From: Paracyclopina nana
Lineage: Eukaryota; Arthropoda; Copepoda; Cyclopoida; Cyclopettidae
DNA length: 64,000 nucleotides
Direction of reading: 5' to 3'
Assembly: GCA_019096065.1 (NCBI GenBank)
Contig: JAGUCH010000006.1
Coordinates: 3,740,001 to 3,804,000, forward strand
Shown: in pieces, positions 4,612-27,261 of the stretch
Numbering within the stretch: the first letter of the stretch is position 1
How the letters are laid out: the number at the start of each line of letters is the position of its first letter
Made by a program: the position numbers and the translations under genes
Notes under the pieces: model-generated
Database searches by the model: none
Told to the model about the DNA's origin: nothing
Seen by the model: the letters and a program-made list of their open reading frames with translations, nothing else

Positions 4612-7198
4612 TCACAATACAAAAGTCCTTTCTTGTGAAAATGATTGCTGCTGTCTTTTTCTCAGCTGAGCAATTTTCTGGAAAAAGTCCTTTCTTCTCT
4701 TTCGTTTCCGTTTCAAGTTCACTTCTGGATTTGGATCCTCAAGCAACAGATCCTTGATGCTACTTTCTGTCGTTTCTTCGACATCTTTCTGCTTTGACTC
4801 TTGAGTGGACAGAAGGAGTGATTGAATGGCTGATATTTTATTCAACTCCAGCTCTTCCAATTCCTCACTGACATTGTCTTCACTGCCATACCCATCCTCA
4901 CTATGATCCTTGGAGTCTTCTTCAGCAAGGTCCTCAATTTCTTCCTCGTTGTCATACTCGTCATCCTCGCCCAAAATCTGCTCCGGAATGTGAGTTTTAA
5001 GTATTTCTTTGGAAATGGCATTTTCTTCGGAGCTCTGAGGAAACACCATTTTCTTCATGGAATCCGCTGACTCCAGGACTTCTTCCAAGGGATCATTCAA
5101 CACATCTCCATTTTGGTGGACAAAACCCTCTGGCAGTTTCAATGAAGGCTTAAAGTTGGCAATTCTCTGGTTTGGATGCACTTTACTGGCGACATTGAAG
5201 TTGGTGTCACGGCTGGGCAAGAAGGGACCATTGCCAACCAATTCGCTTGGAGGATCAACCACTTTAATGGTTGCCAAAGTCGTACGAAACTCCTCTTGTG
5301 CGCGTTGAGAAGATCCGAATTGGGTTGTAAATGCTGCCTGATTACTGGATGTCAATGGTGACACGTAAGAAGCTGGGGCACTTATGGCAGTTGGGCCAAC
5401 AAGGGGCGAGTTGTAATTATTAGGAGCTGAAACAGCAAATGTATTTTGTAACGTAGTTGGAGGCCCAATTACGTTGCCATTTGGTGATCCATAAGAATCT
5501 TCATTTGGAGTACTTGGAGGCAACGGGGGTGGTGGTGCTACCGCACTTTGCATTTCATTGAATGGAGTCAAAGGTGCCTCAAATGCTGAGTTGGCAGAAT
5601 ATGAATTTGGAGCTGGAGCTGCATTGCCAGCATTGGTAGTTGTGTATCCAGAATTTGGAGCTGAAAATGCATTATTGCCAGCATTGGTAGTTGTGTATCC
5701 AGAATTGGGAGCTGAAAATGCATTATTGCCAGAACTTGGTGCATTGTAACCGTTGTTTGTGTTTCCATTGCTGGGAGCTGCATATCCTGAACCAGGAGCC
5801 CCATATCCTGAACTGGGTGCACTATTAGGAACTCCATATCCTGAACTGGGTGCACTATTAGGCGCTCCATATCCTGAGCTAGGAGCTCCATATCCTGTAT
5901 CTGGAGCTTCGTATCCACTGCTGGGTGCTCCATAACCAGAATCAATTCCATTGGTACAAGATGCCAAGTTGTCAGCTTGTCTCGCTTCGTAGGGCAAGCA
6001 AGTGTGCTTCATTTGCTTTTTGGGCACTTGCGTTGGCTTGTTGCCACACTGCTCCTTTCGGATGGGCTTGCACGTGGTTTTGGGAATCCTGTGACACTTT
6101 GTAATTGGTTCGCACTTTTGCACAGGTACTTGCCTGCACTTTTGCGAGTAGCCAGCTGTGTCACATTGGGTTTGATACAACATGGTGCAGGATTGGTCTT
6201 CTACGCATTTGGCAGGGTATTTTGTCTCGCATTTCTCGTCGTACACATCCACACATTGCCTGAAAAATTAATTATTTTCACTAAAAAATGGTTTAAAAGA
6301 AAGGTTAGCTCACCTGACGGATTTCGTTTCAAAAACCGTCTCGTAATACTGTATGCATTTTTGGCACTCAGTTTCCTTCACTTTCATCGGTTTTTCGTGA
6401 GGAATCTTTTTACACTCGCGATGTGAATAAAGTTGCTTGCAGTCGGTTGTATATTCCACAGAGCACTTTGTGGTCCAATACTCTCGGCAAGGACAGTTGC
6501 AATTATCAGCCATCATGGATTTTTTGGCGTTTTTCATAAGTTTACCTGAAAGGCATAAGACACGTGTCAAGCATCACTGAACGTTCACAACCCTTGCCAA
6601 AAAAAGATGTCATCATTAATCATCAAAAAGTCACCTTTGATATGAAGTTGGTAGCCTTCAGAGTTATTGCTGCCCCCTCATTTCACGAGGCATGTAAATA
6701 GTGAAACGAATTTCAAAAGTAAAGTCACTTTTGTAAGATATGTGATCTGTAATCCTATAGGTTCATTTGTCTCATTCCAGTGACTCTGCACATGATTGCA
6801 GATTCATCCTTGTACTTTTGGAAATAAAAACTGACCTACCTACCTAGCATTATGGACGATTTACTGCTGCTCTAGCTTAGGCTGTCCTTCAAACAAAAAC
6901 TATAAATAAATTTTGTCAAGAAATAATAATTCTGCCAAACCGAAAACGCATTATAAAAACATAATTGCCAGACCAATGACATTGTGCATCGATCTTTGCA
7001 GAATTAGATTCACCGCAAAAAGCTATGAACATGAATTATTCTGAGAAGGTGAGTAAAACAGTACTTACTAAACAAGCAGTGGCCATCTTGTATCATGAGC
7101 ATCGTCCAAATGAGCCCAAATGTTGCCAAATGAAGCTAATTAAAATGAAGAAAATAGTTAGAAATTAAAAATGCAGCTAAAACATTATTTACCTTCAT
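4612..7198 (-). CDS. Secreted Cys-rich, resilin-like YGAP-repeat protein with acidic and basic tail
   Basis: Reading leftward, the coding exons are 7198-7193 (only ATG AAG), 7135-7069, 6545-6314 and 6259-4612; phases agree and give 650 residues. Exons 1-2 encode a signal peptide (MKLHLATFGLIWTMLMIQDG). Residues about 38-204 are a Cys-rich module with regularly spaced short cysteine pairs such as CEPITKCHRIPKTTC. Then come GYGAP-SS/NSAP repeats (about 209-275) and two tandem 17-residue units around NNAFSAPNSGYTTTNAG. Next are a Pro/Asn-rich linker, a Glu/Asp-rich segment and a Lys/Arg-rich C-terminus containing KRKRKRRKDF. YGAP repeats are typical of resilin-type elastic and cuticular proteins, so an extracellular matrix or cuticle role is inferred; I do not recognise a named orthologue. 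In-frame TAA lies just upstream of the ATG. Introns are 57, 523 and 54 bp. Confidence 0.82.
6546..7068 (-). other. Intron 2 of the secreted repeat protein gene
   Basis: This intron of 523 bp separates the signal-peptide exon (donor GTAAGTACT) from the first Cys-rich exon (acceptor TATGCCTTTCAG). It is AT-rich and no further exon or repeat is seen inside it. Confidence 0.6.
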
Positions 7199-17424: not shown

Positions 17425-17433
17425 CTGCAGTGT

Positions 17434-17545
17434 GGTACATACTAAAAACCGCACCCAAAAGCATTATTCCGCACCAAACCGCACCAAACCGCACCATACC
17501 GCACCAAACCGCACCATACTAAAAACCGCACCCAAAAAAAATCAA
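17434..17545 (+). repeat. Left terminal inverted repeat with ACCGCACC motif cluster
   Basis: The stretch starts GGTACATACTAAAAACCGC and contains about eight copies of an (A)CCGCACC motif spaced by AAA, AT or a few other bases. The segment CATACTAAAAACCGCACCC occurs twice, suggesting a short internal duplication of the terminus. The same motif recurs inside every 170-bp monomer as ACCGCACCCA and its inverse, which links terminus and satellite. Confidence 0.75.
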
Positions 17546-17578
17546 TTATAAACTGAAGCTTATTAATAATAAAACTGA

Positions 17579-20500
17579 ACGGCACCCATAGTAGTAAAAA
17601 CAAGGCTAAAGTAGTCAAAATTATTTTGAGGCATCTCAGGGTACAAAAGCTGATGAGACCTCATGCGTTAGGTCCCAGATAGTCCAAAACCAGCCCAAAC
17701 TCAAACACTTTACTACAAGGTGCGGTACGCTAGAGGCCAAAAACGCAGCTAATGCACCCATAGTAGCAAAACAAGGCTATGATGTAAAAATTACTTGAAT
17801 CCATCTCATGGCCCAAAAGCTGATTGGACCTCATGAGTTAGGTCCCAGAGAGTCCAAAACCAGCCCTAACTCAAAAACTTTACTACACGGTGCGGTACGC
17901 TAGACGCCAAAAACAGGGCTACCGCATCCATTGTAGTAAAACAAGGCTGTGATGTAAAAATTACTTTGAGGCATCTCATTGCCCAAAAGCTGATTGGACC
18001 TCATGAGTTAGGTCCCACAGAGTCCAAAACCAGCCCTAACTCAAAAACTTTACTACATGGTGCGGTACGCTAGAGGCCAAAAACGCGGCTACCGCACCCA
18101 TAGTAGTAAAACAAGGCTATGATGTGAAAATTACTTTGAGGCATCTCAGGGCCCAAAAGCTGATTGGACCTCATGAGTTAGGTCCTAGAGAGTCCAAAAC
18201 CAGCCCTAACTCAAAAACTTTACTAAACGGTGCGGTACGCTAGAGGCCAAAAACGCGGCTACCGCACCCATAGTAGTAAAACAAGGCTATGATGTGAAAA
18301 TTACTTTAAGGCATCTCAGGGCCCAAAAGCTGATTGGACCTCATGAGTTAGGTCCCAGAGAGTCCAAAACCAGCCCTAACTCAAAAACTTTACTACATGG
18401 TGCGGTACGCTAGAGGCCAAAAACGCGGCTACCGCACCCATAGTAGTAAAACAAGGCTATGATGTGAAAATTACTTTGAGGCATCTCAGGGCCCAAAAGC
18501 TGATTGGACCTCATGAGTTAGGTCCCAGAGAGTCCAAAACCAGCCCTAACTCAAAAACTTTACTACATGGTGCGGTACACTAGAGGCCAAAAACGCGGCT
18601 ACTGCACCCATAGTAGTAAAACAATGCTATGATGTAAAAATTACTTTGAGGCATCTCATGGCCCAAAAGCTGATTGGACCTCATGAGTTAGGTCCCAGAG
18701 AGTCCAAAACCAGCCCTAACTCAAAAACTATACTACATGGTGCGGTACGCTAGAGGCCATAAACGCGGCTACCGCACCCATAGTAGTAAAAAAAGGCTAT
18801 GATGGGAAAATTACTTTGAGGCATCTCAGGGCCCAAAAGCTGATTGGACCTCATGAGTTAGGTCCCAGAGAGTCCAAAACCAGCCCTAACTCAAAAACTT
18901 TACTACATGGTGCGGTACGCTAGAGGCCAAAAACGCGGCTACCGCACCCATAGTAGTAAAACAAGGCTATGATGTGAAAATTACTTTGAGGCATCTCAGG
19001 GCCCAAAAGCTGATTGGACCTCATGAGTTAGGTCCTAGAGAGTCCAAAACCAGCCCTAACTCAAAAACTTTACTAAACGGTGCGGTACGCTAGAGGCCAA
19101 AAACGCGGCTACCGCACCCATAGTAGTAAAACAAGGCTATGATGTGAAAATTACTTTAAGGCATCTCAGGGCCCAAAAGCTGATTGGACCTCATGAGTTA
19201 GGTCCCAGAGAGTCCAAAACCAGCCCTAACTCAAAAACTTTACTACATGGTGCGGTACGCTAGAGGCCAAAAACGCGGCTACCGCACCCATAGTAGTAAA
19301 ACAAGGCTATGATGTGAAAATTACTTTGAGGCATCTCAGGGCCCAAAAGCTGATTGGACCTCATGAGTTAGGTCCCAGAGAGTCCAAAACCAGCCCTAAC
19401 TCAAAAACTTTACTACATGGTGCGGTACACTAGAGGCCAAAAACGCGGCTACTGCGCCCATAGTAGTAAAACAAGGCTATGATGTAAAAATTACTTTGAG
19501 GCATCTCATGGCCCAAAAGCTGATTGGACCTCATGAGTTAGGTCCCAGAGAGTCCAAAACCAGCCCTAACTCAAAAACTATACTACATGGTGCGGTACGC
19601 TAGAGGCCATAAACGCGGCTACCGCACCCATAGTAGTAAAAAAAGGCTATGATGGGAAAATTACTTTGAGGCATCTCAGGGCCCAAAAGCTGATTGGACC
19701 TCATGAGTTAGGTCCCAGAGAGTCCAAAACCAGCCCTAACTCAAAAACTTTACTACATGGTGCGGTACGCTAGAGGCCAAAAACGCGGCTACCGCACCCA
19801 TAGTAGTAAAACAAGGCTATGATGTGAAAATTACTTTGAGGCATCTCAGGGCCCAAAAGCTGATTGGACCTCATGAGTTAGGTCCCAGAGAGTCCAAAAC
19901 CAGCCCTAACTCAAAAACTTTACTACACGGTGCGGTACGCTAGAGGCCAAAAACGCGGCTACCGCACCCATAGTAGTAAAACTAGGCTTTTGGGTGAAAA
20001 TTACTTTGACACATCTGATGGTCCAAAACCTGACTGGACCTCATGAGTTAGGTCCTAGAGAGTCCAAAACCAGCCCTAACTCAAAAACTTTACTACATGG
20101 TGCGGTACACTAGAGGCCAAAAACGCGGCTACCGCACCCATAGTAGTAAAACAAGGCTATGATGTGAAAATTACTTTGAGGCATCTCAGGGCCCAAAAGC
20201 TGATTGGACCTCATGAGTTAGATCCCAGAGAGTCCAAAACCAGGCCTAACTCAAAAACTTTACTACATGGTGCGGTACGCTAGAGGCCAAAAACGCGGCT
20301 ACCGCACCCATAGTAGTAAAACAAGGCTATGATGTGAAAATTACTTTGAGGCATCTCAGGGCCCAAAAGCTGATTGGACCTCATGAGTTAGGTCCCAGAG
20401 AGTCCAAAACCAGCCCTAACTCAAAAACTTTACTACACGGTGCGGTACGCTAGAGGCCAAAAACGCAGCTAATGCACCCATAGTAGTAAAACAAGGCTAT

Positions 20501-20953
20501 GATGTGAAAATTACTTTGAGGCATCTCAGGGCCCAAAAGCTGATTGGACCTCATGAGTTAGGTCCCAGAGAGTCCAAAATCAGCCCTAACTCAAAAACTT
20601 TACTACACGGTGCGGTACGCTAGAGGCCAAAAACGCGGCTACCGCACCCATTGTAGTAAAACAAGGCTATGATGTAAAAATTACTTGAATCCATCTCATG
20701 GCCCAAAAGCTGATTGGACCTCATGAGTTAGGTCCCCGAGAGTCCAAAATCAGCCCTAACTCAAAAACTTTACTACATGGTGCGGTACGCTAGAGGCCAA
20801 AAACGCGGCTACCGCATCCATTGTAGTAAAACAAGGCTGTGATGTAAAAATTACTTTGAGGCATCTCAGGGCCCAAAAGCTGATTGGACCTCATGAGTTA
20901 GGTCCCAGAGAGTCCAAAATCAGCCCTAACTCAAAAACTTTACTACATGGTGC
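17579..20953 (+). repeat. Left arm: forward array of a 170-bp satellite, about 20 copies
   Basis: Copies of TAGTAGTAAAACAAGGCTAT recur exactly every 170 bases (for example 18101, 18271, 18441, 18611). Diagnostic variants recur every 850 bases: the GATGGGAAAA form at 18781 and 19631 and the GGTCCTAGAG/TACTAAACGG form near 18181 and 19031. The arm therefore has a five-monomer higher-order repeat. The outermost monomers (17579-17920) are the most diverged, as is usual at array edges. No open frame spans the units. Confidence 0.95.
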
Positions 20954-23900
20954 AGCTTTTGGGCCATGAGATGGATTCAAGTAATTTTTACATCATTGCC
21001 TTGTTTTATTACAATGGGTGCGGTAGCCGCGTTTTTGGCCTCTCTAGCGTACCGCACCATGTAGTAAAGTTTTTGAGTTAGGACAGGTTTTGGACTCTCT
21101 GGGACCTAACTCATGAGGTCCAGTCAGGTTTTGGACCATCAGATGTGTCAAAGTAATTTTCACCCAAAAGCCTAGTTTTACTACTATGGGTGCGGTTCGG
21201 TGCGGTAGCCCTGTTTTTGGCCTCTAGCGTACCGCACCGTGTAATAAAGTTTTTGAGTTAGGGCTGATTTTGGACTCTCTGGGACCTAACTCATGAGGTC
21301 CAATCAGCCTTTGGGCAATGAGATGCCTCAAAGTAATTTTTACATCACAGCCTTGTTTTACTACAATGGATGCGGTAGCCGCGTTTTTGGCCTCTAGCGT
21401 ACCGCACCGTGTAGTAAAGTTTTTGAGTTAGGGCTGATTTTGGACTCTCTGGGACCTAACTCATGAGGTCCAATCAGCTTTTGGGCAATGAGATGCCTCA
21501 AAGTAATTTTTACATCACAGCCTTGTTTTACTACAATGGATGCGGTAGCCGCGTTTTTGGCCTCTAGCGTACCGCACCGTGTAGTAAAGTTTTTGAGTTA
21601 GGACTGGTTTTGGACTCTCTGGGACCTAACTCATGAGGTCCAGTCAGGTTTTGGACCATCAGATGTGTCAAAGTAATTTTCACCCAAAAGCCTAGTTTTA
21701 CTACTATGGGTGCGGTTCGGTGCGGTAGCCCTGTTTTTGGCCTCTAGCGTACCGCACCGTGTAGTAAAGTTTTTGAGTTAGGGCTGATTTTGGACTCTCT
21801 GGGACCTAACTCATGAGGTCCAATCAGCTTTTGGGCAATGAGATGCCTCAAAGTAATTTTTACATCACAGCCTTGTTTTACTACAATGGATGCGGTAGCC
21901 GCGTTTTTGGCCTCTAGCGTACCGCACCGTGTAGTAAAGTTTTTGAGTTAGGGCTGATTTTGGACTCTCGGGGACCTAACTCATGAGGTCCAATCAGCTT
22001 TTGGGGCATGAGATGGATTCAAGTAATTTTACATCATTGCCTTGTTTTACTACAATGGGTGCGGTAGCCGCGTTTTTGGCCTCTAGCGTACCGCACCGTG
22101 TAGTAAAGTTTTTGAGTTAGGACTGGTTTTGGACTCTCTGGGACCTAACTCATGAGGTCCAGTCAGGTTTTGGACCATCAGATGTGTCAAAGTAATTTTC
22201 ACCCAAAAGCCTAGTTTTACTACTATGGGTGCGGTTCGGTGCGGTAGCCCTGTTTTTGGCCTCTAGCGTACCGCACCGTGTAGTAAAGTTTTTGAGTTAG
22301 GGCTGATTTTGGACTCTCTGGGACCTAACTCATGAGGTCCAATCAGCTTTTGGGCAATGAGATGCCTCAAAGTATTTTTTACATCACAGCCTTGTTTTAC
22401 TACAATGGATGCGGTAGCCGCGTTTTTGGCCTCTAGCGTACCGCACCGTGTAGTAAAGTTTTTGAGTTAGGGCTGATTTTGGACTCTCTGGGACCTAACT
22501 CATGAGGTCCAATCAGCTTTTGGGCAATGAGATGCCTCAAAGTAATTTTTACATCACAGCCTTGTTTTACTACAATGGATGCGGTAGCCGCGTTTTTGGC
22601 CTCTAGCGTACCGCACCGTGTAGTAAAGTTTTTGAGTTAGGGCTGATTTTGGACTCTCTGGGACCTAACTCATGAGGTCCAATCAGCTTTTGGGCAATGA
22701 GATGCCTCAAAGTAATTTTTACATCACAGCCTTGTTTTACTACAATGGATGCGGTAGCCGCGTTTTTGGCCTCTAGCGTACCGCACCGTGTAGTAAAGTT
22801 TTTGAGTTAGGGCTGATTTTGGACTCTCGGGGACCTAACTCATGAGGTCCAATCAGCTTTTGGGGCATGAGATGGATTCAAGCAATTTTACATCATTGCC
22901 TTGTTTTACTACAATGGGTGCGGTAGCCGCGTTTTTGGCCTCTAGCGTACCGCACCGTGTAGTAAAGTTTTTGAGTTAGGACTGGTTTTGGACTCTCTGG
23001 GACCTAACTCATGAGGTCCAGTCAGGTTTTGGACCATCAGATGTGTCAAAGTAATTTTCACCCAAAAGCCTAGTTTTACTACTATGGGTGCGGTTCGGTG
23101 CGGTAGCCCTGTTTTTGGCCTCTAGCGTACCGCACCGTGTAATAAAGTTTTTGAGTTAGGGCTGATTTTGGACTCTCTGGGACCTAACTCATGAGGTCCA
23201 ATCAGCTTTTGGGCAATGAGATGCCTCAAAGTAATTTTTACATCACAGCCTTGTTTTACTACAATGGATGCGGTAGCCGCGTTTTTGGCCTCTAGCGTAC
23301 CGCACCGTGTAGTAAAGTTTTTGAGTTAGGACTGGTTTTGGACTCTCTGGGACCTAACTCATGAGGTCCAGTCAGGTTTTGGACCATCAGATGTGTCAAA
23401 GTAATTTTCACCCAAAAGCCTAGTTTTACTACTATGGGTGCGGTTCGGTGCGGTAGCCCTGTTTTTGGCCTCTAGCGTACCGCACCGTGTAGTAAAGTTT
23501 TTGAGTTAGGGCTGATTTTGGACTCTCTGGGACCTAACTCATGAGGTCCAATCAGCTTTTGGGCAATGAGATGCCTCAAAGTAATTTTTACATCACAGCC
23601 TTGTTTTACTACAATGGATGCGGTAGCCGCGTTTTTGGCCTCTAGCGTACCGCACCGTGTAGTAAAGTTTTTGAGTTAGGGCTGATTTTGGACTCTCTGG
23701 GACCTAACTCATGAGGTCCAATCAGCTTTTGGGCAATGAGATGCCTCAAAGTAATTTTTACATCACAGCCTTGTTTTACTACAATGGATGCGGTAGCCGC
23801 GTTTTTGGCCTCTAGCGTACCGCACCGTGTAGTAAAGTTTTTGAGTTAGGGCTGATTTTGGACTCTCTGGGACCTAACTCATGAGGTCCAATCAGCTTTT

Positions 23901-26512
23901 GGGCAATGAGATGCCTCAAAGTAATTTTTACATCACAGCCTTGTTTTACTACAATGGATGCGGTAGCCGCGTTTTTGGCCTCTAGCGTACCGCACCGTGT
24001 AGTAAAGTTTTTGAGTTAGGGCTGATTTTGGACTCTCGGGGACCTAACTCATGAGGTCCAATCAGCTTTTGGGGCATGAGATGGATTCAAGCAATTTTAC
24101 ATCATTGCCTTGTTTTACTACAATGGGTGCGGTAGCCGCGTTTTTGGCCTCTAGCGTACCGCACCGTGTAGTAAAGTTTTTGAGTTAGGACTGGTTTTGG
24201 ACTCTCTGGGACCTAACTCATGAGGTCCAGTCAGGTTTTGGACCATCAGATGTGTCAAAGTAATTTTCACCCAAAAGCCTAGTTTTACTACTATGGGTGC
24301 GGTTCGGTGCGGTAGCCCTGTTTTTGGCCTCTAGCGTACCGCACCGTGTAATAAAGTTTTTGAGTTAGGGCTGATTTTGGACTCTCTGGGACCTAACTCA
24401 TGAGGTCCAATCAGCTTTTGGGCAATGAGATGCCTCAAAGTAATTTTTACATCACAGCCTTGTTTTACTACAATGGATGCGGTAGCCGCGTTTTTGGCCT
24501 CTAGCGTACCGCACCGTGTAGTAAAGTTTTTGAGTTAGGGCTGATTTTGGACTCTCTGGGACCTAACTCATGAGGTCCAATCAGCTTTTGGGCAATGAGA
24601 TGCCTCAAAGTAATTTTTACATCACAGCCTTGTTTTACTACAATCGATGCGGTAGCCGCGTTTTTGGCCTCTAGCGTACCGCACCGTGTAGTAAAGTTTT
24701 TGAGTTAGGGCTGATTTTGGACTCTCTGGGACCTAACTCATGAGGTCCAATCAGCTTTTGGGCAATGAGATGCCTCAAAGTAATTTTTACATCACAGCCT
24801 TGTTTTACTACAATGGATGCGGTAGCCGCGTTTTTGGCCTCTAGCGTACCGCACCGTGTAGTAAAGTTTTTGAATTAGGGCTGATTTTGGACTCTCGGGG
24901 ACCTAACTCATGAGGTCCAATCAGCTTTTGGGGCATGAGATGGATTCAAGTAATTTTACATCATTGCCTTGTTTTACTACAATGGGTGCGGTAGCCGCGT
25001 TTTTGGCCTCTAGCGTACCGCACCGTGTAGTAAAGTTTTTGAGTTAGGACTGGTTTTGGACTCTCTGGGACCTAACTCATGAGGTCCAGTCAGGTTTTGG
25101 ACCATCAGATGTGTCAAAGTAATTTTCACCCAAAAGCCTAGTTTTACTACTATGGGTGCGGTTCGGTGCGGTAGCCCTGTTTTTGGCCTCTAGCGTACCG
25201 CACCGTGTAGTAAAGTTTTTGAGTTAGGGCTGATTTTGGACTCTCTGGGACCTAACTCATGAGGTCCAATCAGCTTTTGGGCAATGAGATGCCTCAAAGT
25301 AATTTTTACATCACAGCCTTGTTTTACTACAATGGATGCGGTAGCCGCGTTTTTGGCCTCTAGCGTACCGCACCGTGTAGTAAAGTTTTTGAGTTAGGGC
25401 TGATTTTGGACTCTCGGGGACCTAACTCATGAGGTAAAATCAGCTTTTGGGCCATGAGATGGATTCAAGTAATTTTACATCATTGCCTTGTTTTATTACA
25501 ATGGGTGCGGTAGCCGCGTTTTTGGCCTCTAGCATACCGCACCGTGTAGTAAAGTTTTTGAGTTAGGGCTGATTTTGGACTCTCTGGGACCTAACTCATG
25601 AGGTCCAATCAGCTTTTGGGCCATGAGATGGATTCAAGTAATTTTTACATCATAGCCTTGTTTTACTACAATGGGTGCGGTAGCCGCGTTTTTGGCCTCT
25701 AGCGTACCGCACCGTGTAGTAAAGTTTTTGAGTTAGGACTGGTTTTGGACTCTCTGGGACCTAACTCATGAGGTCCAGTCAGGTTTTGGACCATGCGATG
25801 GATTCAAGTAATTTTTACATCATAGCCTTGTTTTACTACTTTGCTATGGGTGCATTAGCTGCGTTTTTGGCCTCTAGCGTACCGCACCGTATTGTAAAGT
25901 TTTTGAGTTAGGGCTGGTTTTGGACTCTGTGGGACCTAACAGCTTTTGGGGCATGAGATGGATTCAAGTAATTTTACATCATTGCCTTGTTTTACTACAA
26001 TGGGTGCGGTAGCCGCGTTTTTGGCCTCTAGCGTACCGCACCGTGTAGTAAAGTTTTTGAGTTAGGGCTGATTTTGGACTCTCTGGGACCTAACTCATGA
26101 GGTCCAATCAGCTTTTGGGCCATGAGATGGATTCAAGTAATTTTTACATCATAGCCTTGTTTTACTACAATGGGTGCGGTAGCCGCGTTTTTGGCCTCTA
26201 GCGTACCGCACCGTGTAGTAAAGTTTTTGAGTTAGGGCTGATTTTGGACTCTCTGGGACCTAACTCATGAGGTCCAGTCAGGTTTTGGACCATGCGATGG
26301 ATTCAAGTAATTTTTACATCATAGCCTTGTTTTACTACTTTGCTATGGGTGCATTAGCTGCGTTTTTGGCCTCTAGCGTACCGCACCGTATTGTAAAGTT
26401 TTTGAGTTAGGGCTGGTTTTGGACTCTGTGGGACCTAACTCATGAGGTCCAATCAGCTTTTGGGCCATGAGATGCCTCAAAGTAATTTTTACATCACAGC
26501 CTTGTTTTACTT
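20954..26512 (-). repeat. Right arm: inverted array of the same 170-bp satellite, about 33 copies
   Basis: The monomers are the reverse complement of those in the left arm; the switch is abrupt at 20953/20954. A marked variant containing CCTAGTTTTACTACTATGGG followed by a 10-bp insertion (GCGGTTCGGT) recurs at 21171, 21691, 22210, 23069, 23419, 24278 and 25137. The spacings are 520, 519, 859, 350, 859 and 859, so a five-monomer higher-order repeat of 859 bp is present, distinct from the 850-bp one of the left arm. Near the right edge a monomer at about 25940 has lost 15-16 bases and a block is repeated at 499-bp spacing (25831 and 26330). Confidence 0.95.
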
Positions 26513-26514
26513 TT

Positions 26515-27068
26515 ATTGGGCTTTGCTCACGGTGTAGTTACATTTTTCCGAATAAGGTAAAAAAGATGGCATTAGGAGTAACCTCCGATTCTTTTTCAAA
26601 GTCGCTTCAACTAGTTTGTCCCATAATCGTTATCATTTGGCTTTTTGACTCTTAAAAACTCAATATTTGGCGTTCTAGTCAAGAAACGAGTGATTTTCTT
26701 CATTTTACAGATAGCTTCAACGTGTATTAAGCTTGGTTTTCTTGGGCAAAGTGTCCGACAACGCATGCTATAATTATTTATTTTGAGCATAAAATGATTA
26801 CAAAGGTAGATTAAAACTTGCTTTTCAAAAATTAGAAGACTAAAATATTAGAGAAGTAGTTGAAATATATCAAATCTGGTTGCTTTAAAAATTGATCGGA
26901 GGTTCAATATTTTTAGATCGGGGATAGTAGTGGGGCAGGTGCAAACAGAAACAGATCGAAATTCAATTTTCAGCCCGCTTAGCTTACGCTGCTATTAGCT
27001 GGGGTATCATTAGCTCCTCCTGGCGGCAAAAATCATTACTACCAGAGCCTCCGTAAGCAAAGCCCAAT
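26515..27068. mobile_element. Probable nested MITE-like insertion inside the satellite
   Basis: The segment is bounded by 18-bp inverted ends, ATTGGGCTTTGCTCACGG on the left and the complement of ATTGGGCTTTGCTTACGG on the right, differing at one base. Similarity continues weakly inward with gaps. Satellite sequence stops at its left side in TTGTTTTACTTTT and resumes at its right side with GGTGCGGTTCGGTGCGGTAG, which is the matching part of the marked monomer variant. The interior has no recognisable coding sequence. No clear target-site duplication was found, so a structural feature of the host element is the alternative. Confidence 0.6.
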
Positions 27069-27154
27069 TGGTGCGGTTCGGTGCGGTAGCCCTTTTTCGG
27101 CAATTTTTTTACTCTCTGTTATCTAGAAATTTTTTCTTATTAAATTGAATTTTT

Positions 27155-27252
27155 TTATTTCTCTTTTTGTTATGGTGCGGTTTTTAGTATGGTGCGGTAT
27201 GGTGCTATTGGGTGCGGTTTGGTGCGGTATGATGCTGTTTTTTGTATATACG
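27155..27252 (-). repeat. Right terminal inverted repeat with TGCGGT motif cluster
   Basis: Read on the minus strand it starts CGTATATACAAAAAACAGC and then carries the same ACCGCACC-type motifs as the left end, including CCATACTAAAAACCGCACC. Small insertions and deletions relative to the left terminus show the two ends have diverged, which argues that the element is not newly inserted or that its ends evolve quickly. Confidence 0.75.
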
Positions 27253-27261
27253 CTGCAGTGT

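What the first reader, a model, noticed from the sequence alone, without database searches (positions are those of the whole stretch)
17425..27261. A 9.8-kb foldback transposon whose body is a satellite DNA array
The sequence shows a perfect 9-bp direct repeat (CTGCAGTGT) exactly outside 15/19-matching inverted ends, with only inverted arrays of a 170-bp satellite in between. Foldback elements of flies have inverted repeats of tandem units and 9-bp duplications, but arms of about 20 and 33 copies of a centromere-sized monomer with higher-order structure would be an extreme form. It suggests that this satellite travels, or arose, as part of a DNA transposon.
Basis: partly seen in the sequence, partly recalled or inferred. 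Interest (0 to 1): 0.85.

Follow-up and report, generated by a model that had tools for sequence, protein, structure and literature searches.

The report
Foldback transposon with satellite-DNA arms
This stretch is one of a family of jumping DNA elements in a small animal-like genome whose bodies are two facing arrays of a 170-base repeat, which suggests that satellite-like DNA can be carried from place to place inside a transposon.

Summary
In detail: the element runs 17434-27252 between perfect copies of CTGCAGTGT, with 20 and 33 inverted copies of a 170-bp repeat; 26515-27070 is an unrelated nested repeat.

The transposon reading is strongly supported. Ten two-ended copies on seven contigs share the plan end A, plus arm, minus arm, end B (two with extra parts); nine have perfect, different 9-bp duplications. 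For two, other copies of the invaded repeat show the empty site with one 9-mer. Of 577 monomer cores in the assembly, 430 lie in these elements and 527 at the fetched places, each with a whole or truncated end. The repeat is essentially part of this transposon.

A motif, CGCACC, repeats in the ends and occurs twice in the consensus monomer. Its preceding base changes from C to A between two subfamilies, wholly in arrays and partly in ends, hinting at binding sites for one protein.

No transposase was shown between such ends, so Mutator type is inferred. Closest in print: Tm1 and Tetris. An extreme variant of a known kind.

The parts
17425..17433 (.). left copy of the 9-bp target site duplication CTGCAGTGT
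17434..17581 (+). end A: GGTACATACTAAAAACCGCACC followed by ~10-bp subrepeats (CCGCACCAAA); 7 CCGCACC in the first 150 bp
   Evidence: related end at the nine other two-ended copies
17582..20956 (+). left arm: 20 monomers of the ~170-bp repeat
20957..26514 (-). right arm: 33 monomers of the same repeat in inverted orientation, meeting the left arm near 20.95 kb without a spacer
26515..27070 (.). unrelated 556-bp dispersed repeat nested in the right end (not part of the element proper)
27071..27252 (-). end B: reverse complement begins CGTATATACAAAAAACAGCATC; 4 CCGCACC motifs in its last 150 bp
   Evidence: related end at the nine other two-ended copies
27253..27261 (.). right copy of the 9-bp target site duplication CTGCAGTGT

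Best explanation
The window element is a non-autonomous foldback DNA transposon, most likely moved by a Mutator-like transposase (9-bp staggered cut) acting in trans on two unlike ends, A and B. Its two arms are tandem arrays of a ~170-bp repeat that belongs to the transposon. Shown: a family of copies, fixed A/B ends, 9-bp duplications, clean empty sites for two copies, inverted arms of very different length, and central junctions and array blocks shared between copies at different sites. Inferred: the Mutator type of transposase; that the CGCACC motif, present as subrepeats in the ends and twice in the consensus monomer, is the transposase-binding site; that arrays grow and shrink by unequal exchange or slippage and by copying between arms, while the element can still move with kilobases of array.
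For: Nine of ten two-ended copies have perfect 9-bp duplications, all different in sequence: the window, and 8 of the 12 pairings tested; its 4 misses are 3 wrong pairings and the tenth copy, C3:4605525-4608310. Empty sites with a single 9-mer for C5:4711560 and C4:6154541: 23 and 28 listed places span the join, of which 2 and 2 were fetched and aligned. All ten have a plus arm then a minus arm, 4-33 and 8-53 monomers, except that C7:3034535 has a second inner pair of arms and an inner A end, and C3:4605525 a ~600-bp spacer. No stop-to-stop frame over 126 aa in nine of ten; the tenth holds a nested Pao-type retrotransposon. In the typed end lists (75 A, 90 B) the facing pairs within 20 kb are one A and one B in 45 of 45 cases, one of the 45 being the inner A of C7; 75 ends have no facing partner in the lists. 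C5:4711560, C1:12482765, C5:5749363 and C3:9302297 share one central junction, and C3:2329197 and C2:7737764 another. The last two, on different contigs with different duplications and identical 180-bp ends, share in the same order 1,224 bp (99.75%; end A plus ~1 kb of array) and 2,490 bp of array across the junction (97.7%). Motif: eight subfamily-1 elements, ends 83 CCGCACC to 0 ACGCACC, interiors 497 to 0; two subfamily-2 elements, ends 6 to 10, interiors 0 to 226.
Against: No transposase was shown between A/B ends. Of five MULE-domain loci, none has an A/B end string in its 3.3-kb locus except one 11-base string inside the open frame of L062, and no end listed (100 of 135) or 18 (100 of 100) lies within 100 kb of any of them; a diverged B-type end was seen by reading ~0.9 kb beyond the open frame of one, belonging to a neighbouring element. 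The only transposase found between related ends is of another type (PF13359), and its relatives lie away from listed B ends. One two-ended copy has no duplication, and the two short relatives read have only imperfect flanking repeats. Subfamily-2 ends keep 6 CCGCACC, so the motif change is partial in the ends, and it is a single contrast between two lineages. Shared array blocks could also come from gene conversion.
Confidence: 0.88

Rival explanations
1. The satellite is an independent genomic satellite into which, or around which, a transposon's ends were placed; the arrays are passengers.
For: Some monomers lie where no end is listed: among the 100 exact places listed, nine (C1:1156975, C1:11842514, five at C1:4881367-4882225, C2:8561431 and C2:8562271) have no end near them (the A list shows 100 of 135). 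Unassembled DNA was not seen.
Against: 430 of 577 cores lie inside ten two-ended elements and 527 of 577 at fetched places each with a whole or truncated end; those places were chosen through end or satellite hits, but 577 is a whole-assembly count. Monomers carry the motif of the ends and changed with them.
Confidence: 0.06
2. Short foldback elements inserted first and each array grew in place afterwards, so the satellite itself has hardly travelled.
For: Arm lengths vary widely. In several copies nearly every monomer has its nearest relative in the same element: window 51 of 52, C4:6154541 52 of 53, C3:2329197 70 of 81.
Against: Sister copies share junctions and ordered array blocks of 1-2.5 kb. 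In C2:7737764 41 of 46 monomers, in C5:5749363 33 of 43, in C3:9302297 26 of 31 and in C1:12482765 39 of 63 are nearest to a monomer of another element. Growth in place has clearly also happened, so this is a matter of degree.
Confidence: 0.2
3. The copies are moved by a transposase other than Mutator type, for example Merlin (8-9 bp duplications, recalled) or the PF13359 transposase seen between related ends.
For: PF13359 transposase inside C2:2622681-2628343, between A'/B' ends; no MULE shown between A/B ends.
Against: The two closest relatives of that transposase (C3:4800925, C8:348664) lie away from listed B ends, so it looks nested. Nine-bp duplications and unlike end motifs fit Tm1, whose coding copy has a MULE transposase.
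Confidence: 0.2
4. Assembly artefact or segmental duplication.
For: Long tandem arrays are error-prone in assemblies; copy numbers may be off. Not testable here without reads.
Against: Different flanks, different perfect 9-bp repeats and clean empty sites do not arise that way.
Confidence: 0.02

Closest known systems
Tm1, Mutator/Foldback family of Meloidogyne (PMC3169594; abstract, passages, sections 6 and 9 seen)
   Same: Composite inverted ends with tandem subrepeats of variable number; unlike terminal motifs (A1/A2) outside the inverted part; mostly 9-bp duplications; MITE-like forms; M. hapla lacks an intact transposase copy.
   Different: Tm1 repeats are mostly 14 bp, 1-9 units per end, and the elements described are about 1-2.6 kb; end sequences differ; here arms are kilobases of a 170-bp repeat and no coding copy was found.
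Tetris, foldback element of Drosophila virilis (PMC4079207; abstract, first parts of Results and Discussion seen)
   Same: Inverted ends containing ~220-bp tandem repeats that also form satellite arrays; 8-10 bp duplications; non-autonomous; a related MITE (DAIBAM) shares its ends; no transposase copy found; its repeat shares a stretch with the outer end.
   Different: Its ends reach 1,735 bp, 395 of 610 repeats lie in contigs of repeats alone, and its authors suggest that larger arrays may have disrupted transposition; here complete copies with perfect duplications hold up to 86 monomers and most monomers lie inside elements.
Galileo (P superfamily; PMC3688188, passages seen)
   Same: Foldback-like long ends whose tandem repeats carry extra transposase-binding sites, tested by gel shift.
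   Different: P-type transposase with THAP domain; arms a little over 1 kb; 7-bp duplications (recalled).
Rehavkus (PMC6446971, passages seen)
   Same: 9-bp duplications and a minisatellite within a MULE-like element.
   Different: Minisatellite before the 3' end only, and a transposase with PHD finger; here both arms are arrays and no transposase is present.
FB elements of Drosophila melanogaster (recalled)
   Same: Long inverted repeats of tandem units, 9-bp duplications.
   Different: Units of tens of base pairs rather than 170 bp; sequences not compared here.

Membership tests
Foldback-type transposon (structural class) | long inverted arms made of tandem direct repeats, variable in length | tested here: met
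   10 of 10 two-ended copies
Foldback-type transposon (structural class) | ~9-bp target site duplication | tested here: met
   9 of 10 perfect; empty sites for 2 of 9 joined sites
Mutator (MULE) superfamily | 8-11 bp duplications | tested here: met
   9 bp; the range is from PMC6446971
Mutator (MULE) superfamily | MULE transposase encoded by an element with the same ends | tested here: inconclusive
   5 MULE loci by PF10551 and 24 matches to one of them, none shown between A/B ends; the mosaic C4:3916560-3916980 joins MULE pieces, an A end and satellite
Tm1 | unlike terminal motifs at the two ends | tested here: met
   45 of 45 facing pairs in the typed lists are A plus B
Tm1 | Tm1 motif sequences (A1 CGGTTAA, A2 CCTACCC, 14-bp motif C) | tested here: not met
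   by eye: ends are GGTACAT... and CGTATAT..., subrepeat CCGCACCAAA
Tm1 | FLYWCH-MULE transposase | tested here: inconclusive
   four of five MULE loci scanned as single open frames: no FLYWCH hit, two with a RING finger, one of these below Pfam's cut-off; other exons were not modelled, and none lies between these ends
Tetris | sequence similarity to Tetris ends or TIR-220 | not tested
   no Tetris sequence was at hand
Rehavkus | minisatellite at one end only, PHD-finger transposase | tested here: not met
   arrays in both arms; no long frame in nine of ten copies

The most novel reading that the evidence does not exclude
The 170-bp satellite is an amplified array of binding sites for the element's own transposase: the consensus monomer holds two inverted CGCACC motifs like those repeated in the ends, and selection for recognition keeps arrays and ends matched when the motif changes. 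Satellite DNA would then be built and kept by transposition and would move as multi-kilobase cargo, a possible source of centromere-like repeats that a transposase-derived protein can bind.
Probability: 0.3. Interest if true: 0.8.

Novelty: new variant of a known kind. Interest (0 to 1): 0.62.

Why it matters
How satellite arrays start and spread is an old question. The Tetris authors proposed that foldback transposons seed satellites but that larger arrays may have stopped the element moving. Here nine copies with perfect duplications hold 20 to 86 monomers, and sister copies at different sites share array blocks, which suggests that long arrays can travel. The related motif change in ends and monomers gives a directly testable idea of why the repeat is kept: as an array of protein-binding sites.

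Tried and rejected
The nematode SL1 leader (recalled) has 0 exact matches in the 92 Mb. Protein look-ups named no close source: 18 hits without an organism name for a window frame, and 14 for a MULE protein, two named as a glass sponge (Oopsacas minuta) at 34-36% identity. The organism is not identified; 'animal-like' is an inference from the genes.

Autonomous partner: MULE loci L059-L063. C5:6359976 (L061) has CGCAC-rich subterminal repeats and a possible 10-bp direct repeat CATCAGTATG; about 0.7 such 10-mer matches are expected by chance in the space that I searched (my estimate), so its limits are only a suggestion. The PF13359 transposase in C2:2622681-2628343 looks nested.

The right-end search with 603 bp was swamped by the nested repeat and was repeated with 182 bp. 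The satellite search by similarity scored 37 of 60 candidates, and its shown list lacks two known copies (C4:6154541, C1:12482765), so counts rest on the pattern scan. My palindrome score for the arm junctions was crude and is not used; by eye the C3:2329197 and C2:7737764 junctions hold a perfect 32-base palindrome. An earlier count said 9 of 12 pairs matched; the right figure is 8 of 12 there, plus the window.
Full report
What is there. The window lies at C6:3740001-3804000 of an unnamed 92-Mb, 10-contig genome. The 9-mer CTGCAGTGT occurs twice in the window, at 17425 and 27253, immediately outside two related but unlike ends: A, GGTACATACTAAAAACCGCACC..., and B, CGTATATACAAAAAACAGCATC... 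read inward. Between them lie 20 plus-strand and 33 minus-strand monomers of a ~170-bp repeat. The right end is interrupted by an unrelated 556-bp dispersed repeat at 26515-27070: 40 scored matches out of 177 candidates, and the 29 fetched copies L010-L038 align to it.

Family. Searches with the A end, the B end and their patterns found many related sites. Ten elements with both ends were read. One search tested 12 end pairings: 8 gave perfect 9-bp direct repeats, 3 were wrong pairings, and 1 (C3:4605525-4608310) is a two-ended copy without a repeat. With the window that is 9 of 10. The nine 9-mers all differ; read with end A on the left, 5 of 9 begin GTT, a weak hint of target preference noted after the fact. 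All ten have a plus arm followed by a minus arm; lengths run from 2,786 to 18,207 bp. C2:7737764 includes a ~9.6-kb nested element with Pao peptidase and reverse transcriptase domains; C7:3034535 has a second inner pair of arms and an inner A end.

Empty sites. The nine flank pairs were joined with one 9-mer each and searched (40 of 678 candidates scored, 73 rows). Two sites gave matches that span the join: C5:4711560 at 23 listed places and C4:6154541 at 28, the latter often as two arms of one inverted repeat ~650 bp apart. Two places of each were fetched, and alignment shows a single TAGTAGAAG or GTTGTGAAC, with flanks that differ by point changes and a 2-base gap near the join and by small differences at the outer edge. 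These two elements thus inserted into copies of older dispersed repeats, with a 9-bp duplication and nothing else at the join. The other seven sites, the window's included, gave no listed spanning match; since two repeats filled the list, this is inconclusive.

The satellite belongs to the transposon. The 22 bases of the monomer that match most monomers, with up to 3 mismatches, occur 577 times in the assembly, and 0 times for the reversed control. The same rule finds 527 in the window plus the 20 stretches, of which 430 lie inside the ten two-ended elements. The 21 sources make 15 places, each with a whole end or, at C5:7325052, a truncated A end. They were chosen through hits to the ends or to the satellite; 577 is the whole count. 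Of the 50 cores outside, the 100 exact places listed show 16: seven at C2:57153-58193 next to a B end, and nine with no end near them; the other 34 were not seen. No separate large array was seen, but unassembled DNA cannot be excluded.

How arrays evolve. Alignment of 513 monomers (those under 140 aligned positions dropped) shows two subfamilies, with consensus 86.5% identical. Within the ten elements mean identity is 89.8-95.6%, with only weak higher-order periodicity in the seven arms examined. C5:4711560, C1:12482765, C5:5749363 and C3:9302297 share the same arm junction, A ends 97.6-100% and 180-bp B ends 100% identical, yet carry 13/14, 30/33, 21/22 and 16/15 monomers. C3:2329197 and C2:7737764 share another junction; in the same order they share 1,224 bp at 99.75% (end A plus about 1 kb of array) and 2,490 bp across the junction at 97.7%. 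The simplest reading is that elements moved with kilobases of array, which then lost and gained blocks; gene conversion between copies is an alternative. Local turnover is also strong: nearest relatives lie in the same element for 51 of 52 window monomers and 52 of 53 of C4:6154541, but in another element for 41 of 46 of C2:7737764 and 33 of 43 of C5:5749363.

Matched motif. CCGCACC recurs in the ends (~10-bp subrepeats) and, in subfamily 1, once on each strand of the consensus monomer. In eight subfamily-1 elements the ends hold 83 CCGCACC and 0 ACGCACC, the interiors 497 and 0. In two subfamily-2 elements the ends hold 6 and 10, the interiors 0 and 226; the printed subfamily-2 array shows both motif copies of the monomer changed. 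So the arrays changed wholly and the ends in part. Outside the element the window holds one CCGCACC/GGTGCGG in 54,163 bases. This is one evolutionary contrast, not many, but it is what shared recognition by one protein, or exchange between ends and arrays, would give. Binding of a transposase to repeats in long arms has been shown for Galileo (PMC3688188, passages).

Unlike ends and short relatives. In the typed end lists 45 of 45 facing pairs within 20 kb are one A and one B; 75 of the 165 typed ends have no facing partner there. Thirty-five of the pairs are 0.6-1.8-kb elements, mostly with ends GGTACATACTAAATACCGCACA and CGTATATACTAAATACCGCACA. Two of these were read: neither holds the satellite, and both have only imperfect flanking repeats.

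Transposase. None was shown inside such ends. The genome has at least five MULE loci; of four scanned, two also hit a RING finger, one below Pfam's cut-off. The one at C5:6359976 has CGCAC-rich subterminal repeats and a possible 10-bp direct repeat that chance could give, and a diverged B-type end of a neighbouring element starts ~0.9 kb beyond its open frame. At C4:3916560-3916980, 107 and 35 bp of this MULE element, an A end and 49 bp of satellite lie within 421 bp, and a like MULE fragment lies ~1.5 kb from an A-like end on C8. These are leads, not proof.

Comparison with print. Six literature searches were made. Tm1 shares unlike ends, tandem subrepeats and 9-bp duplications but has ~14-bp units. 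Tetris shares the idea of a satellite inside foldback arms, with arms up to 1.7 kb and the suggestion that larger arrays may have disrupted transposition. No title or abstract start in those listings describes complete elements with arms this long, but the library holds only open-licence papers and only the named parts were read.

Verdict. A real, repeatedly transposed foldback family whose arms are satellite-like arrays; an extreme variant of a known kind, with a testable link between array and ends.

Noticed in passing
window 26515-27070: A 556-bp dispersed repeat with matching inverted ends (ATTGGGCTTTGC...), nested in the right end; the 29 fetched copies are 88.6-94.2% identical over their main aligned piece.
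   Followed up: partly
L061 and L066 (C5:6358476-6362500): A MULE open frame with a weak RING-finger hit, CGCAC-rich subterminal repeats and a possible 10-bp direct repeat (chance not excluded); a diverged B-type end of another element lies ~0.9 kb beyond the frame.
   Followed up: partly
L072 (C4:3916560-3916980): Mosaic of pieces of that MULE element, an A end and satellite sequence within 421 bp; a like MULE fragment lies ~1.5 kb from an A-like end on C8.
   Followed up: partly
C2:2622681-2628343 (L067 inside): A 5.7-kb pair of A'/B' ends enclosing a PF13359 (DDE_Tnp_4) transposase frame, probably nested.
   Followed up: partly
L052/L053 (C2:7737764-7755970): Satellite element interrupted by a ~9.6-kb stretch with long open frames, Pao peptidase and reverse transcriptase domains.
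   Followed up: partly
C9:500540, C6:5293195, C5:2142795, C4:8876411, C3:2896751, C1:16033321, C5:6038316, C2:7595443: Eight similar sites with a TGTATATACAAAAAA-type end related to B; not read.
   Followed up: no
target sites of the nine copies with duplications: Read with end A on the left, 5 of 9 duplications begin GTT; a possible target preference, noted after the fact.
   Followed up: no
window 5603-5934: Short tandem repeats (21-51 bp) within a long open frame with a weak mucin-like match below Pfam's cut-off.
   Followed up: no
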